This document shows positions 29,658 through 64,000 of a stretch of DNA of 64,000 nt, piece by piece. Each line of letters starts with the position of its first letter. The first letter of the stretch is position 1. The DNA is from Scatophagus argus. Its lineage: Eukaryota > Chordata > Actinopteri > Scatophagidae. Both the position numbers and the translations under genes were made by a program. Below the pieces are notes generated by a model. The model saw only the letters and a program-made list of their open reading frames with translations. It made no database searches and was not told the DNA's origin. Location: contig NC_058499.1 in NCBI RefSeq assembly GCF_020382885.2, positions 4,595,501-4,659,500 of the forward strand. The letters are read 5' to 3'.

Positions 29658-30421
29658 CTGACTGCCTGAACTGCATTTTAAATCTTGTTGCAGCACAAAC
29701 AGGCACGCTATTCTGCAGGAGGGTGGAATTAAATGTTTTACTTGACTTATCCACACATGCTGGATGCAGGCATGTTAATGTATGTTTACTTAATAAATAT
29801 GAACTGACACTTTGATCAGCAGTCTTGAAATAGACGACAGCATTTGATTCGCGCTGACAAGGAGGCATAGTGCTTTATTAAAGTGAAAAGACCTCTGCTG
29901 CGTCTACAACTTCAGTCTGAATGTATACAGTCACTGAGTTCAGGTGAGGGAAATGCGTCGCGTCCCATGGTGCAATACTGCAGCAACTGCCTCTGGATAC
30001 TATGGCATCCATTGCGTCAAAACATTTCTGTCCTGTTGATGTTCAGAATGTTTTCAGCGACTTTACACCCTGAAGATGCAGACTGAAACACAGCTCGCAC
30101 ACAACCAGAACCCACAGATTCATACCGGCGGTTCGCCTATCACTCACCCCGCTCTATCTGCGCTTTGGCGGCGTCCAGCTGGTGCTCTGTGCTGATCTCG
30201 CCGATCACTATCAGCATGTAGTAGCTGCCCCGGTCGAACGGAACCCCGCGCCGCCTTCTCCCTCCTCCTCGGCGATACCGTAGTCGTTCCTCGGACCCCG
30301 GCGGCGGTGGTGGCGGCGCGCTGTAGCCCTCGTCTTCTTCCACCACCGGGAGCGCACCTCGCACCGGAATCTCCATGGCAACAACCCCGGGAGTCGACGC
30401 CGAGGCTGACTCCATCGCCAT
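24663..30421 (-). CDS. map1a: MAP1A-type microtubule-associated protein, N-terminal exons 1-2 (partial gene)
   Basis: Two coding exons join in frame. Exon 1 is 30421-30148, ending in phase 1 at a GTGAGT donor. Exon 2 is 24764-24663, preceded by CCCGGCAG and followed by donor GTCAGT, again in phase 1. The joined 125 codons begin with an acidic, Pro-rich, Arg-rich leader (six prolines near residue 35, RRRR near 58) and then give YYMLIVIGEIS, IERGIRSWDVDL, CDLDQQLQLF and ITRHSAHFSSEVRG. These are hallmarks of the extreme N-terminus shared by MAP1A (long form), MAP1B and MAP1S, microtubule-binding scaffolds of neurons. CDLDQQL plus chromosomal context favour MAP1A. The start at 30421 is chosen because it has G at -3 and G at +4; the frame is open upstream to 30595 but that part looks like 5' UTR. 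Intron 1 is 5.4 kb. The large body exon, light chain and stop are not seen and should lie left of the window. MAP1 family membership is firm; paralogue assignment is less so. Confidence 0.8.
26910..27165 (+). repeat. Copy 2 of the GTTAGTTGCAGCC-type interspersed repeat
   Basis: Carries GTGAGGATGTCCTGCTCTTC, TTGGACTTTTGGTTGCACAA, TTATTTTCTGAAATTTAACG and a degraded end GAAAATAATAACAAAAACTG CAGC. It shares block order with the copies at 3670, 46990 and 47460. Confidence 0.55.
29622..29656 (+). repeat. (AC)n microsatellite in map1a intron 1
   Basis: An uninterrupted AC run of about 17 units. Confidence 0.9.
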
Positions 30422-30600
30422 GACAACTACCGGTGTGAGCCAGAAGAGGAGTATGGTGGGGTGAGGGAGGGAGGAAGGGGGACGGTGGGTGAGGCGGATA
30501 TTGAGAGGGGAGGGGAGTGAGGACAGAGGAAAACCAAACCTCCCTGAATATATAAAAAGATTTATTTCCGGTTCAGCTTTCAGAATAAGAGCCATGTGCT
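30422..30600 (-). promoter_or_regulatory. map1a 5' UTR and proximal promoter, edge of a CpG-rich island
   Basis: The CpG-dense stretch covering exon 1 continues upstream of the chosen ATG. The minus strand here is pyrimidine-rich (CCCTCCC/CCTCCC blocks) and carries a TTTTTATATATT stretch near 30545-30557 that could act as a TATA-like element. The frame remains open through the region, so an upstream in-frame ATG at 30595 cannot be excluded. The transcription start was not determined. Confidence 0.4.
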
Positions 30601-30631
30601 GTCTTCAAAACTCTGAAAGATTGGTGGACTT

Positions 30632-39500: not shown

Positions 39501-42500
39501 TTAGTTGTTTGCCTGGAAGCCTCCCTGGGCAGCAGAGGTTGCTGCACTGGCAGCAGCCGTTTGGAAGGTTTTACTGGTGAAGACGCCCTGTGAAAATTCC
39601 TGCTGGGCCTTCTGGAAACTGGCCCCAGTCCGGCGGTACATGCTGTGGACCTGAAGAGAAAGAATGACCGAGATTTGAATGCAAACTCCAGCATTGGGGG
39701 CACAATCCCTAATTTGTGTTTAAATTTCCACTGACAAATAAAAGCATGGAAAAGGGTAAAGCAGCTAACCCTCAAATTAATGTTAAAAAACATGAGAAAA
39801 GTCTCACCATCTTGAGCAGGATGACAGACAGCACAGCACAGATGGTGAACAAGATGGCCACTATGATCATGATGGCTCCCACTGCCTTGTTGCTGGTGAG
39901 ACTTGTGAAGGCAGCGATCCATCCACTGGAGTCAACAAACATCACAAATTTTAAGATGACCTCACAAACAACATAAACAAGTATTAAACATTTGCATACG
40001 GTACATACACGTACACACACGTAAATGTGTATTCTAGCTGCTGGCTTTTGTTTTTTGAGAGAAGAAGTCTGTTGAAGACGAAGCGTGAGAAGAAGAAGCA
40101 CAGTGAAAGTTGCAAATCATAAAATTTTGACTTTGCCTTGTGATTCATATCACTCTATAATGCACATAACAAAAGTGGTATTATTATAGCACGAATACAT
40201 GCTTTAAAAGATGAAATAAAACATGTCAAAATGAGGGTACATTTTCATATTTATATCCTAAAAGCATCTTTGTTGTTAAAATTGTGCTGCTTTGCTGCAA
40301 AACAATAGTATGTCCTCTGACTGTGTCTGTTTTGATGTTATGCAAAGTGCCTTGATGAAATGAGTGTCATTATAAAATAAAAGGGAGGTGAAGAGCCCTT
40401 TGGACAAGGTTCGTCCTGGAAAGTGCCATTTTGAAATCAAAGGGCTTTTACCAACTTGCACTTCACTTTATTTAAAATGTGCATCACCAAAAGAGTCTTT
40501 GCACACCTTACACGTTAATATACAATCTCAGGCAGAGAATTAAAAGACCTGTACTTTTCTCATTTGAGTCATCTGAGTGAAATCCACGCTGGGCCTCTTA
40601 CTACACCTCAGAACTCAGCACCCATTATGAGGACAAAGCCAGAAGAGAGCGAGTGTTGGCAGAACGTTGCAGAGACAGGAAGCAGCAGAAACTTACAGAT
40701 TTACCAGCAGACAGAGAGGCAGCAGGCTAAAGCCTGAAGGATGAAAAGTCTCTGTCAGAAGAGATGAAAAAATGCAGAAAGTGAGAAAAAGAGAAAAGAA
40801 GGAGGAGAGCAGCTTTTAGGCCGACTGACTGCTCATATGAACGCAAAGAACCACAAGTAAACAGAAAACCCCTTTAAATCAATCCCCAGGAAATACAGTT
40901 AATTTGTGCCATCAGCAATTTGTGATTCATATGTTCAGTTTAGCAATAATGGATCAATTTGATGTGAATAAATTCACAGTTACTTTTCATGTTTCATTCT
41001 AAGTGTTAATTATTCGTAACAGGATATGTTCAACAAAAAGTGTACCAGTACTGTTAATTACAAGGTAGTCAAATCTATAAATTAAGAGAATGGGATTTGG
41101 ACATTTTTCAGCTTTCTATCATTTCTATACACATTTTTTTAAGACATCACTGATCACTGAGGACACAATCTAAACCGTTATAAGCTTTTACTTCACAAAC
41201 CCTCCACATGTCAAAATGAAACCGGGTGACTCACCTGTTCCCCCAATTGGGGATGCCTACCGCCTGGATGATTAAGATCACCACTTGGAAGAAAAACACG
41301 AAGAAGAAGAAGAAGAAGCTGAAGGAGCTGTCAGTCCTAAAGATAAGAAAACATACGTGTCACGTTACATTTTTGAAAATATTCTCAAAGGATTGTTGTC
41401 AATTTCAAAATAAAAGTGTGTTGTGTATGGCTGACCAAGTCTTATAACAACTCATATTGCATGCAAGTCCATTATTTTCCATTTTTGGATGTTGCAGAGT
41501 GTATTATTGTCCTCACATTATGGCTAAATATGGAATTGTTTTAACTGTTAATGTCTGTAGTCTCTTTAACCCACTGTTAAGGTTAGTTTCAAGTTTTCCC
41601 CTCAGGGAATGCATAACATGGTAGTATATTTCATTGTGATATTTACCCTACAGTTTAATAAACCTTGAGCTCTGACTTAGAACAGTGGATGAACTACAGA
41701 GTGAAACCAGACAGAAAACAGTATTTCCAATGATCAAGTCAAAACGCATAAAGAGCACTACATTCTAGTTTGCATTTAATGCTAACACTAACACATAAGC
41801 TACCCATGCAGATAAGTAAAATGTATAAAGACAGTTGAATCTTCTTTGGCTTACTGTGCATTGTGGGATAAAACAATACAATATATATAATAATACAATA
41901 GTTGTTAGCAATGTGGAAAGTTAGAGTAATCCTAGGTAGCTATTTATGCACTATTTGATGTCCATTTCACCTGTATTTTTGTATAGCATAATATATCATC
42001 TGTACATTTCATCTTGTAAATTATGTCCATGGTTCCTGCCTATAGTCTACTACATCTAATGCACATATTCACCTGTATAATATGTTCATAGTACCCAATC
42101 TGTAAATCACTTGTAAATTATTGACATAATATACCATGTAAATACTGTTCATTTATTTATTATATCTGCACTTGCTGCTTTCTGCACTTTTGGTTCGATG
42201 TTAAACTGCATTTCGTTGCCCTGTACCTGTACATGCGTAACGACAATAAAGTTGAATCTAATCTAATCTAAAGTAAGTATTGTAACTTACTATAGATACG
42301 TAAAATCTAAGTGGATGTTGCAAAAGCCAGGCACACAGATTCTAACTAACACATTGTCAATAATGACAGGAGACTCACTTGAAGGCCTTGTAGATGGGCC
42401 GGTACCAGCACAGGAAGGAGCAGGGAGCGAAGAGGATGAGCCAGAGGATTGAGAGGCCGAAATCCACCCCTTGGGACGCAGCTGTTATGAAGTAAGCCAA

Positions 42501-55000: not shown

Positions 55001-57614
55001 CGGAGCACTATCCAGACAGCAACCACAAGCCGGAGATGGCCATCGCTCTCACCCGCTTCCAGGGCCTCTGCGGTTTCAGGCCAGTGGAGGAGATCCTGGG
55101 ATTTCTTAAATGTAAGAGCCCAAGGCCTACATGGTCAGAATTCTACATTATATAATGGATGGGGAGGTAAAGTGCTATACATTGAAGTTCATAAATGCAT
55201 GTGCGCTCCCTCCAGCTGTCCCGGAGTTTCGTGCTCTGGTGGGAAGTGAGACAGCGGAGGAGCTGCAGTCCAGCATGGGAGACGCCGTTCAAACGAGCCA
55301 GGTGCTGAAGAAGTGCTTCACCAGGATGATGAACTGCGAGAAGAAGGTGTTCGTAGATCAGCTCAACATGCTCGTCAAGAGAGTCACTGAAGAAGGTGAG
55401 GCTGAGGCTGAGGGGTGTAATGGAGCTCCAAACAACAGAAAAGAAATACAGACTTCATTGCTGATTTTGTTCAGTTAGTTTAGTTGGTTTGTCTTAAACA
55501 TTTACGAGTCATGATAGTGTGTGTAAACATGTTGCTTTTTAGACTGTGCTTTTCTTTGCTGCACGCTCTTCGTTTGATTACGAGAGGATTGCTCAATATG
55601 TGGAAACAAACCGTAGCCAGCAAACTGGTATCTGATGCAAGTGTGTCAGAGGGAGGGCCAGCATCCTCACAGGTTTACAAAAGACAGCAGCTGGCTAAAA
55701 CACTCAAGTTCGGTAACATTTCACTAAGCATATGTATTTTATTGTCATTATTAGCACCTCAGTGATCCTCACAGACCGCGATGTCCTGACCGTATTTCTG
55801 TCGTGCTGATATCAACGGTAAGCCACACCCTGTTGTGTGTTATTGCTTAACTCACACTCGTAGCTGTTTATGTCCCATGCAGGTGCAGCAGGGAAGGACA
55901 CATCAAGCAGCAACGGCGACCTGTTGCTCCGCCTTCACTCCCAGTACCCCGGGGACATCGGCTGCTTCTCCATCTACTTCCTTAACCACATGATCCTGGA
56001 TCCAGGCCAGGCCATGTTCCTGGGAGCCAACGAGCCTCACGCTTACCTTTATGGAGGTCAGATGACCGTGGTTTTGTTTATATTCAACAGATTTCGTGTT
56101 CCAGGTCTTATCCAGGCTGAGTGAAAACAGCAGCAGGATGTGTCTGACACTCCAGCGTCCCTCCAGCACTGCTGTATGAAAGACAAGCAGCAGATGAAGC
56201 ATTAGAGGACAACAGGCATTCTAGTTTTTAGCAAACATTACAAAAACATGAGTAAATGGTCCCTTAATTTGTGCCTATTTCCAGTTGCGGATGAAAACAC
56301 ATTTGGTGCTCTAGCAAGAATTGCCTGCAGCAGGACACTGCATGTGGGACTGAGTCGAAGAAACTGCCACAGGATAGGATCACATAGGATCAACTTATTT
56401 GGTTGGTTTCAGGATTTTCTGACAGTAAGAAAAATGCAGAATATCTTACAAGCTTCCTCAACAGACGAAGAAAGCAATGCAGCCATGAGAGGTGCGAGTG
56501 CAGCTTTATCTTTGGAAATACTGGCAGTTTTTCCTTAATATCACTATTCCTGTTCACCTGCATTCTCACACCCGCTGTCCAGAGGCATTGTGGGAAATCA
56601 CTAACTGTTAAAGTAGACACAGCAACTAGGGGGCGTTGACAGACGAAATAATTCCTGTAATGCAGTTAACATCGCTTTGTAAGAGCATCTGAGAATTGAT
56701 TTTTTCATTTGAAGGAGAGCCGACCGTCCGCTCTGCTTATTTAAAACTTGTTATCGTTTTCTGTCTGTTCATCCATCCAGACTGTATCGAGTGTATGGCC
56801 TGCTCAGACAACACGGTGAGGGCCGGTCTGACGCCAAAATACATTGATGTGAACACGCTGTGCGAGATGCTGGACTACAGCCCCGCCCCCGCCAGCTCCA
56901 AGATCTTCCCATGTGTGCAGGACGCTTCGGACCCGTGTGTGTCCCTGTACGACCCCCCAGTGCCAGACTTCACTGTCATGAGGATTCAGGTGAGAAAGCC
57001 TCAGCTGACTTCAGGAGGGATATATTTAGTAATGGATAACATAGTTTCTTTATGAAACACTTAATTTAAAAATGAGATTTGGTTAGGAGGTGGGTTACAA
57101 GTTTGGCCAGTGTGTCACTGTAGCTAGAGCATATTAGGAACAAATGGAAAATTCTCACCTTTTTTAAAAGTGTTGTATGACTTGAAAGAAATGGTTACAA
57201 TTTGGAGAAAAAAATAAGTTTAAAGCTTGAAATGTGATGCCTGCCTGAAGAACATCCTTCGTTGTGCTCCTTTGCTGTTTCGTCTCAGAGGAGGTCTTTC
57301 TCTGAATTTATTGTACATAAAAAACTAAGTCATGTAAGAGCAAAAATAAGCATACAGAAACATTCTCACCTTGTTCTGTCCCGTCCCTCCCGCAGATCCC
57401 AGCCTCCGTGAAGCAGTACACTGTCGCTCCAGTCGACAGCGCCAGCATCCTCCTGGTCATTGAAGGCGACGCCACGGCAACATCTGCCGCCGCCCTCTCT
57501 GACGTCGCACTGAGGCGGGGCGCCGTCCTCTTTGTCTCGGCCAACGAGAGCATCTCCCTGCACATCAGCTCTCAGGCGGGGATGACCATGTTCCGAGCCT
57601 GTTGCCTCCTGTAG
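52077..57614 (+). CDS. mpi: Mannose-6-phosphate isomerase (phosphomannose isomerase), eight exons
   Basis: Exons: 52077-52092, 52823-52950, 54511-54711, 54970-55111, 55216-55395, 55883-56056, 56781-56989 and 57396-57614 (TAG). Phases agree throughout; 1269 bp, 422 aa, against 423 in human. The cytosolic zinc enzyme interconverts fructose-6-phosphate and mannose-6-phosphate and so feeds mannose into GDP-mannose and N-glycosylation; human loss causes MPI-CDG. The sequence shows the type I PMI fold: [10 protein letters not shown] near the start, [17 protein letters not shown] with zinc ligands Q110 and H112, [10 protein letters not shown] with ligand E137, [10 protein letters not shown] with ligand H275, and the active-site arginine in [10 protein letters not shown] (R294). 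The C-terminus FRACCLL matches the human end. Exon 1 is tiny (16 bp, MEEVR). The start is fixed by CAGCCATGG, a strong Kozak context. The last sense codons CGA GCC TGT TGC CTC CTG precede TAG at 57612. Confidence 0.97.
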
Positions 57615-60946: not shown

Positions 60947-62162
60947 TTATAATTCATTAAGTTCTCCTTCACGGCTGTCTGATGTGCTCTCTGTGACTTT
61001 CATCGTCTGCCTGAAGTGCTCCCACAGGGGGCGCTGTTCCATTAGTCTACAGGGAACTTCAGATTTAGCGGCTGGTTTGTTTTCCATGCTGTCCAAAGTG
61101 AACCTGTGCCTACAGATCAACTCTGGTGTGGGCCGAAGCACGCTGTACAGGGCCTGCAATGCCCGTACATCCTCCAAAGCATCGTGGGCCTTGTAGTCCA
61201 CACCCAGCAGCTCCCGGACCAGGTTCTCCTGACGAAAACTCTGCAGGGCGCGGTCCTTCAGCATCTCACGAGCCAGCGGCAGGGTGTCAACACAGCCCGA
61301 GACCGATGAGTCAAACTCTGCTCTGAGGTCCAGCTCGTCGAGGGCTCGAGCCAACAGCGGGCAGTCGAAGCGCCGGATGTTGTGGCCGATGACAAGCGGG
61401 CGTCCGAGCATCCGGAGGAAAGCTATGAAGGAGACCAGGACCTCTCGCAGGGAGTTGGTGAGGACAAGTTGTCGATGGAGGTACAGTCTCTGTCTGTGGA
61501 CCCTGAAGCCGGTCACTCTGGCTGCTCCTCGCTGCACCCGACACCGAGGGATGACGTACAGGTTGAGTGAGTGGCCTCCGCTCACTGCGGCCAGCTGGAC
61601 AATCTCACACCTGTGACCTGGACAAAGAAAACATGGAGAGAGCAGGCATCACCGCGTGTGCAGAAGATCTTCCACACAGAGGACGATAAGGCAGAAAATA
61701 TGAACACTTTGAGCAAATTATTTAATCATGTTATGAATTCATCGATGGCAATTAGGGAGACCGGAAGTGGATGATATCTAGAAAAGTTAATCCAGAACAA
61801 AGAAGTCTCAAATCACGGGGGGGACACACTGGAGACCCAGTCTCACAGTATTGTCATGACTGTATACCTAATGACAATTTTGATTCAGGACATATTTAAC
61901 TTAAGGGAAAAATCTGGTGAGGATTAAGCTTCAGGGCCGCCGTTTGTACGTGCAGTCTTTTTCACTCATTCATTCAACTTGCAGTGAGTGAATGAGATGA
62001 CACTGAAACTAAAATAAAAGGTGAAGTGGCGTGTCTGACCATGGCCATAAAGTTGTACCTGTCTTAAAACAACACAGAACAAGTGATCTTACCCAGTCCG
62101 GTGGTCTCCAAGTCAAAGAAAGCCAGCGGCTGATGAACGCCGTCCGGATGTGACTTTTGCAT
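60947..62162 (-). CDS. plex9: PML-like exon-9 DEDDh 3'-5' exonuclease (PLEX9 type), two exons
   Basis: Exon 1 is 62162-62093 (phase 1, donor GTAAGA) and exon 2 is 61617-60947 (acceptor TTTGTCCAG, stop TAA); 741 bp, 246 aa. The protein is essentially one RNase T/DnaQ-type exonuclease domain: ExoI FFDLETTGL with D17 and E19, ExoII IGHNIRRFDCPLLARAL with D108, ExoIII YKAHDALEDVRALQALY with H168 and D173. The full DEDDh set for two-metal 3'-5' cleavage is therefore intact. Scattered identities (EIVQLAAV, SVSGCVDTLPLARE, SFRQENLVREL) follow the exonuclease-like domain encoded by exon 9 of PML isoform I, which in human has lost most of these residues. There is no RING, B-box or coiled coil, so this is a stand-alone enzyme, fitting the fish genes I recall being called plex9. 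The TREX or PolC-epsilon-like label is an alternative. Substrate (DNA or RNA) is unknown. The last 50 residues are polar and unassigned. Confidence 0.8.
61618..62092 (-). other. plex9 intron
   Basis: The single intron of 475 bp has clean GTAAG and polypyrimidine-CAG ends and splits the gene just after the ExoI motif. It holds a short imperfect inverted sequence, CACTCATTCATTC against GAGTGAATGAG, near 61960-61996, and nothing else I recognise. Confidence 0.6.
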
Positions 62163-62534
62163 GACAGGAATGTTTTGTAAAATAAACGAAACAAAGACAC
62201 ACTAAAGATACTGGCAATACGTATTCTGACATATAAGGTCGTCGGTTAACACGCGTGTCCCTTGAAGATTTTTCCCTCCGTGTTTTTAAACACCGTTGTA
62301 CGAACCCGACGGAAGATTTTCAAAATAAAAATCCTCGTTATTGCTGAATTCATGTGAGAGAACAAGAGAAATTAGTTGTATGCCAGCACTAAAAACACGC
62401 AGTAACCGAAGGGTGTGTAGCGCTATATGATACAGTGTATGACTGTGGCAAATCAAATTATTTATCCGTCAAAATAACACTAAAATAAGAAAACTTCACC
62501 CTTCATTGGATTGGCGCAAGCGCAGAAATCCTTT

Positions 62535-62630
62535 CTTCCTCCTTCTTCTTCGCTGGGAGGTTTGGCGTGTTGCAATCAACTTGATAGGTGCATATCGCCA
62601 CCTACTGTACTGGAGTGTGTAACTCAGGAT
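62535..62630 (+). repeat. Teleost interspersed repeat (CGCCACCTACTG type)
   Basis: CTTCTTCTTCGCTGGGAGG, GTTGCAATCAACTTGATAGG and ATCGCCACCTACTGTACTGG form a frequent fish repeat lacking coding capacity. Its class is not determined here. It lies about 370 bp upstream of plex9, and a GGCGCAAGCGCAG sequence close to an NRF1-type site sits just before it (62512-62524). Confidence 0.5.
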
Positions 62631-62869
62631 GACTCGTTCCTTTCTTCCTCCTGTGGAAAATATGTAACAAACACAAGCGTCCCAGACACAATGCTGCCCT
62701 CTGGAGGAACTAAATGACGAGACAGTGGAAAATAAATTCAATGGACTACTGAATGACCAGTGTGTGTGTATGTGTGTGTACTTTACAAGTATTACCTTGC
62801 AAGTATTCTTTTAAAATGCATGGAAATTACTTTGCCAAATATAAATTACTTTGCAATATTTAAATTTAA

Positions 62870-62985
62870 ATTTAAATTTTTTATTTACCTATTTTTTGGT
62901 AGCGGGGACATAAAGAATTTCACTGCACATTGTACTGTGTATGATTGTGTGTGTGACAAATAAACCTCTTATATCTTGTATAACA
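62870..62985 (+). repeat. Retroelement 3' tail
   Basis: AAAGAATTTCACTGCACATT, GTACTGTGTATGATTGTGTG and GACAAATAAACCTCTTAT form a common teleost retroposon 3' end. An imperfect AATTTAAATTT palindromic run precedes it. Confidence 0.5.
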
Positions 62986-63510
62986 TAAAGTCTGTATCTG
63001 TTCTACATAAGGATCCTTTGGGTATGTTTTGTGTTATTTTGAATGCAGTTGAAGTGCTAGAAGGCAACCGGATATCTTTAGCGTCCACGAAGTGTTAAAA
63101 GTGACCCTATGATGTCTTTATATCATAAAGTTCCACTGACCATCCTGGACAAACTCTGCACTCAGGAAACAGACGCACTTCTTATCAAACAATGTTAAAA
63201 CATGCAGAAAGCGAAAGTGTTTTTGAAATATTTGAGAATTTATTTTACTATGCTGACACAAACATTTGTCATGCAAATTAGCATAAACCACATATAGTTC
63301 AAGGGGGTCAGCCAAATACTCTGAAGGGTCCTCTGCAGCTCATTTCTCTCTCTGTCTGTGTCATTCTAAATGAGCTCCTCCACTTCCAAAAAGGCTTTGC
63401 TATGAACCCTTACAAAATCTTCTATATTTGCAGCAGGTCATTTGACATTTGACACTACTATAAGGTAGAGCAGGTAATGAAAATAATGAGAACAGAAATG
63501 CTAAAAATAA

Positions 63511-63590
63511 AGATAGATAGATACTTTATTGATCCCGCGGGAAGTTCAAGCATCCAGTAGCCCATTACAGCAGTGTAGGTCAGTCAAGAG
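63511..63590 (-). mobile_element. LINE-type 3' tail, minus strand
   Basis: The plus strand reads AGATAGATAGATACTTTATT then GATCCCGCGGGAAGTTC, the reverse complement of a retroposon tail with CGGGATCAATAAAGTATC and ATCT repeats. The body would continue to the right, where sequence up to about 63600 is probably element-derived. Confidence 0.6.
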
Positions 63591-64000
63591 TAAAGCTTAT
63601 AGCATTGCATGCTAGTCAGTTGAGGTTGTTCCGAGGAAATCTTTTCTGACTGGAAGATTTGTGGAAGATGATTTAAAAACCAACTAATTATACAACAAAT
63701 AGAATTCAAATGGAAATTTAATGGTTCTTGTGGGAAAATTGTATTACAGTTCAATGGAAAACAGACAGCAGTTGTAAGTATGAGACATGTTACAATATAG
63801 CAGGATGACAAAATGAATGAAAATAAATCACCATACAGAGTGAAAATATTTATGAGTTTGGGGTGCAACATGCATTATTGTTTCCGGTCACAAGAAATTA
63901 AATACACATATCTTTCTTTTTTTCTGAATCAGCCTGTTCAAGCCCCTGAGGGTACATCATGAGAACAAAACTGCAAAAGAAATGTTCATTTTTTAAAATT

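What the first reader, a model, noticed from the sequence alone, without database searches (positions are those of the whole stretch)
60947..62162. Stand-alone PML-exon-9-like exonuclease with an intact DEDDh catalytic set
The 246-residue protein is just an exonuclease domain. It tracks the exonuclease-like domain of PML isoform I along its length (FFDLE, QLAAV, a CVDTLPLARE-like block, SF..ENL) yet keeps D17, E19, D108, H168 and D173. The mammalian PML domain, as I recall it, has lost most of these and is thought inactive. This gene therefore probably represents an active, possibly ancestral form of the PML domain. A role in degrading foreign or retroelement nucleic acid is plausible from what is reported for the family, but nothing in the sequence shows its substrate.
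Basis: partly seen in the sequence, partly recalled or inferred. Interest (0 to 1): 0.75.

Follow-up and report, generated by a model that had tools for sequence, protein, structure and literature searches.

The report
Fish PML-like nuclease with transposon kin
A fish gene makes a small DNA-trimming type of enzyme from a known group related to the human PML protein, and the same enzyme-plus-adapter part that ends human PML also ends the proteins of some jumping genes of shellfish, which hints that vertebrates may have borrowed it from a jumping gene.

Summary
The minus strand at 62162-60947 encodes, from two exons, a 246-residue stand-alone DEDDh exonuclease with D17, E19, D108, H168 and D173 intact. 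It is very probably spotted scat LOC124062065, a member of a known fish family: PML-like exonucleases (PLEX9; database names "three prime repair exonuclease 4", "protein PML-like"). Zebrafish Plex9.1 is solved with ssDNA. Activity is likely but untested here. "Ancestral form of the PML domain" is not shown: the fish protein lacks the SAM-like PML_C domain that follows the exonuclease fold in PML-I. New here: the exonuclease-then-PML_C order of PML-I occurs at the C-terminus of Mutator-like, Kolobok-signature DNA transposases (pearl oyster, mussels, unnamed sources). A 2022 paper describes KolobokD transposons with such an exonuclease; its main text does not mention PML. So PLEX and PML exon 9 may descend from a transposon-borne module; direction is unproven. 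An annotated second isoform lacks D17 and E19. The gene itself: new member of a known kind.

The parts
62093..62162 (-). Coding exon 1 (70 nt): residues 1-23 and the first base of codon 24; carries D17 (62114-62112) and E19 (62108-62106)
   Evidence: junction, frame; residues
61618..62092 (-). Intron, GT..AG
60947..61617 (-). Coding exon 2 (671 nt with stop): residues 24-246; D108 (61366-61364), H168 (61186-61184), D173 (61171-61169)
62500..62506 (-). Possible coding end of an alternative first exon (ATGAAGG, then donor GTGAAG) that would explain annotated isoform X2 (MKGHRC...), which lacks D17 and E19
   Evidence: P0001 sequence; only ATGAARGGT in the window, on the right strand about 340 bases upstream of exon 1 (one such match anywhere in the window is expected by chance, 1.59 on average, so the weight lies in place and strand). 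Exon inferred; no transcript seen; an exon beyond 64000 is not excluded
60947..61093 (-). C-terminal tail, residues 199-246, with Q-x-x-L-W-x-x-F (residues 218-225)
   Evidence: low confidence in the model of ortholog P0002 apart from a short helix; motif in 58 of 120 relatives

Best explanation
The gene encodes a spotted scat member of the fish PML-like exonucleases (PLEX9, database name TREX4). It most likely folds as a single DEDDh exonuclease domain and trims nucleic acid, probably DNA, from 3' ends with two metal ions held by D17, E19, D108 and D173 and with H168 as general base. By analogy with studied relatives it would remove cytoplasmic or retroelement-derived DNA. Shown here: gene structure, catalytic residues, family, fold of an 85% identical ortholog by prediction, clade with PML exon 9. 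Inferred: activity, substrate, cell location, retroelement restriction.
Against: No biochemical or expression data for this species. Annotated isoform X2 lacks D17 and E19. Tree support depends on the rows: with Exuperantia in and PML out, PLEX, transposase domains and TREX are not separated; with neither, PLEX + transposase domains have 86/96 and PLEX with TREX is not rejected (AU p 0.417); with PML in, PLEX + PML + TREX is not rejected (p 0.306).
Confidence: 0.85

Rival explanations
1. It is a true TREX (TREX1/2 co-ortholog), as the database name TREX4 and one review (zebrafish trex3 and trex4 co-orthologous with TREX1/TREX2) say.
Against: Plex9.1 matches at E 7e-51 against 2.5e-5 for TREX1; TREX1, TREX2 and the TREX-like chain 9l8a form a 100/100 clade without it.
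Confidence: 0.08
2. An important share of the gene's product is regulatory: the alternative first exon makes a protein without D17 and E19 that binds nucleic acid without cutting, much as human PML-I and Exuperantia do.
For: P0001 starts MKGHRC and a fitting exon end with donor lies upstream. Of the 6 entries whose shown (cut) name says isoform X2 (P0001, P0040, P0055, P0070, P0073) lack D17/E19 and 1 (P0099) keeps them. Human PXL is a binding pseudonuclease.
Against: D17 is present in 88 of 120 listed relatives; some short forms are fragments or read into the intron (P0055 may be one); predicted isoforms do not prove protein.
Confidence: 0.1
3. Origin, host to transposon: Kolobok-type transposons captured an animal PML-like nuclease with its SAM-like domain, rather than the reverse.
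For: The trees do not resolve direction.
Against: The module is found with a transposase domain in molluscs, a wasp (without a PML_C match) and unnamed sources, and in print KolobokD is in molluscs, arthropods and cnidarians, whereas PML/PLEX are reported for jawed vertebrates (title of the NAR paper, which I could not read). The same superfamily is argued to have donated a domain to P2X7 (passage in PMC9587614).
Confidence: 0.25

Closest known systems
PML-like exonucleases PLEX9 / TREX4 of fish (zebrafish Plex9.1, PDB 9mrc, 9mrd)
   Same: Stand-alone DEDDh exonuclease, all five catalytic residues, about 50% identity over the domain
   Different: Another paralog group: the window gene and 9 orthologs form their own 100/99 clade; it has a 48-residue tail
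PML isoform I, exon 9 domain (PXL)
   Same: Collinear exonuclease fold; same clade, 98/93
   Different: PML keeps only D614 and is inactive and has a SAM-like PML_C domain and RBCC; the window protein has neither
KolobokD-type (Pfam 'Mutator-like', PF20700) DNA transposases with C-terminal DEDDh exonuclease and PML_C
   Same: Exonuclease domain about 34-44% identical, DEDDh residues invariant in the 8 aligned
   Different: The window gene has no transposase domain and no PML_C; the KolobokD label is my inference from the signature
TREX1 / TREX2
   Same: DEDDh 3'-5' exonuclease fold
   Different: Separate 100/100 clade; weak sequence match
Exuperantia (Drosophila, PDB 5l7z, 5l80)
   Same: Next fold match after Plex9.1 for the P0002 model; next family after PLEX for the transposase profile
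   Different: Pseudonuclease with SAM-like domain; very long branch, 3.58

Membership tests
PLEX9 / TREX4 (fish PML-like exonucleases) | Full-domain sequence match to solved Plex9.1 and to fish proteins of that name | tested here: met
PLEX9 / TREX4 (fish PML-like exonucleases) | Complete DEDDh catalytic set | tested here: met
PLEX9 / TREX4 (fish PML-like exonucleases) | Stand-alone, without RING/B-box exons | tested here: met
   No such domain in the 10 longest of 25 minus-strand open frames from 62163 to 64000, only sub-threshold matches to other families; closest fish proteins are 243-261 aa. Beyond 64000 not seen
PLEX9 / TREX4 (fish PML-like exonucleases) | 3'-5' exonuclease activity and retroelement restriction | not testable with these tools
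   bench work
PML (TRIM19) | RING, B-boxes, coiled coil | tested here: not met
   Pfam on the protein and on upstream frames within the window
PML (TRIM19) | PML_C (SAM-like) domain after the exonuclease fold | tested here: not met
   No PML_C match listed up to E 10 (the program's filters drop most matches above about 0.1), while the recalled human PML segment gives E 1.6e-27
TREX1/TREX2 | Inside the TREX1/2 clade | tested here: not met
   TREX rows form 100/100 without it; a sister relation is not excluded (AU p 0.417)
KolobokD-type transposon | DDE transposase domain upstream of the exonuclease | tested here: not met
   tblastn of 8 module proteins, 5 of them with a transposase domain, matches the exonuclease exon alone at E<=1e-3
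Kolobok superfamily (for the six PF20700 relatives, not the window gene) | D ... CCHC ... D ... DxxH ... zinc finger ... E | tested here: met
   By pattern: DxxH, zinc-finger-like stretch and E in 6 of 6; first D in 5 of 6 (P0157 starts after it); second D in 5 of 6, in P0127 seen in the alignment; C..C..H.C in 6 of 6, in P0154 the reported one lies upstream and the proper one is seen. DxxH is shared with other superfamilies; a zinc finger between the second D and E is said to be absent from MuDR, P and hAT
Kolobok superfamily (for the six PF20700 relatives, not the window gene) | Terminal inverted repeats and TTAA target duplications | not testable with these tools
   no DNA of these elements at hand

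The most novel reading that the evidence does not exclude
The exonuclease + SAM-like module of PML-I exon 9, and the stand-alone PLEX nucleases such as this gene, descend from the C-terminal accessory module of a KolobokD-type DNA transposon taken up by an early jawed vertebrate; a transposon's own 3'-end trimming nuclease thus became a host enzyme against retroelements and, in mammals, a dead nucleic-acid-binding domain. Exuperantia may be a second, independent uptake in insects.
Probability: 0.45. Interest if true: 0.8.

Novelty: new member of a known kind. Interest (0 to 1): 0.5.

Why it matters
As a gene it extends a known, interesting family by one species. The transposon link would matter more: the 2026 preprint on the structure of PML-I's domain found the exonuclease + SAM arrangement only in Drosophila Exuperantia among its structural relatives. 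Finding the same order, with PML_C matches above the curated cut-off and an intact active site, in DNA transposases gives a testable origin for PML exon 9, PLEX and perhaps Exuperantia, and suggests what the active ancestor did: trim DNA 3' ends during transposition. It also points to PML_C-bearing proteins with a complete DEDDh set in which the role of the SAM-like domain could be assayed.

Full report
The gene. The minus strand of the window holds a two-exon gene: 62162-62093 joined to 61617-60947, with a GT..AG intron, gives 246 residues and a stop in frame. A protein search (256 matches at E<=1e-3, 120 listed) gives Scatophagus argus LOC124062065 isoform X2 at 100% identity over 91% of the query, so the window is very probably spotted scat DNA. 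The closest full-length fish proteins are 82-85% identical; listed relatives bear names such as "protein PML-like", "three prime repair exonuclease 4" and "exodeoxyribonuclease III".

Trees. Rows were chosen: the window, 9 of the 120 listed relatives, 5 further PLEX (3 PDB, pieces of P0121 and P0122), 9 of 9 module proteins, 3 TREX, 10 of 38 bacterial-type. With Exuperantia added and PML out, PLEX, module domains and TREX are not separated. Without Exuperantia and PML, PLEX + module domains form a clade with 86/96, and an AU test does not reject PLEX with TREX (p 0.417). With PML in, PLEX + module domains + PML form a clade with 98/93 and TREX is apart with 100/100; PML sits on a branch of 2.65. 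PLEX + PML alone is neither shown nor rejected (p 0.49), PML with TREX is nearly rejected (p 0.052), PLEX + PML + TREX is not (p 0.306).

Which transposon. The six transposases show D, C-x2-C..H-x-C, D, D-x-x-H, a zinc-finger-like stretch and E in order, with the gaps told in the membership test. That fits the description a 2022 Mobile DNA paper gives for Kolobok lineages (PMC9587614, found passages read). The same paper names a lineage KolobokD in molluscs, arthropods and cnidarians that carries a DEDDh exonuclease similar to Exuperantia, TREX and ERI1; the word PML does not occur in its main text. It also argues that P2X7 gained its ballast domain from another Kolobok protein, a close precedent. 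That my six are KolobokD is inference; Pfam calls them Mutator-like.

Strength of the PML-transposon link. A profile made from eight modules (six from proteins with a transposase domain, plus P0124 and P0125; no fish or PML row) scores the window protein 213.9 bits, PML 62.2, Exuperantia 66.4, TREX1 42.7, TREX2 37.6, 9l8a 34.8, and 38 of 38 bacterial-type sequences 37.3-84.0, three of them above PML and Exuperantia; the best of 2000 shuffled PML sequences reaches 6.2. The main PML alignment (profile 76-247) runs in order from exonuclease into PML_C. The SAM-like part alone gives 16.3 bits for PML against 8.8 for the best shuffle. Taken together, the shared domain order, the Pfam PML_C matches and the tree with PML make common descent of the module likely. 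Direction is inference: uptake from a transposon fits the wider animal spread of the transposon form and the P2X7 precedent, but the trees do not decide. Literature searches aimed at this link showed no paper that makes it: one search found 0 papers; 15 of 643, 20 of 23 and 10 of 1,205 papers were listed, and only open-licence PMC papers are searched.

Isoforms. The annotated isoform X2 begins MK-GHRC. ATGAAGG followed by a GTGAAG donor lies at 62506-62500, about 340 bases upstream of exon 1 on the right strand; it is the only ATGAARGGT in the window, though one match anywhere is expected by chance (mean 1.59). So X2 is probably another first exon spliced to exon 2. It lacks D17 and E19 and should be inactive. 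Five of six entries whose shown name says isoform X2 share this loss.

Judgement. The transposon kinship is the point worth a specialist's time.

Noticed in passing
window 55116-55478 and 56693-57055, + strand: Frames with phosphomannose isomerase domains (Pfam PMI_typeI_hel above cut-off, PMI_typeI_C below it), so an MPI gene probably lies tail to tail with the exonuclease gene. From memory, human MPI and SCAMP2 lie in 15q24.1 about 1 Mb from PML, so the locus may be the old PML neighbourhood.
   Followed up: partly
window 39772-40116, - strand: A frame of a SCAMP-family membrane protein (Pfam SCAMP, 27.1 bits, just at the cut-off).
   Followed up: no
window 30140-30604, - strand: Open frame ending in a MAP1-like N-terminal stretch (Pfam E 0.0066, below cut-off); gene not identified.
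   Followed up: no
window 62500-62506, - strand: Probable alternative first exon giving a form without D17 and E19; entries named isoform X2 without these residues are also listed for Perca, Betta, Melanotaenia and Cebidichthys.
   Followed up: partly
P0121, P0122, P0123: Annotated fish proteins with two or more exonuclease copies in a row (Merluccius, Siganus, Scleropages), suggesting tandem gene arrays or fused gene models.
   Followed up: no
P0155 (Homarus americanus): A glutathione-transferase-type N-terminus joined to exonuclease + PML_C: perhaps another host capture of the transposon module, or an assembly artefact.
   Followed up: no
window 63510-63550: A GATA run followed by TACTTTATTGATCCCGCGGGAAG, which from memory resembles a common fish interspersed repeat.
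   Followed up: no
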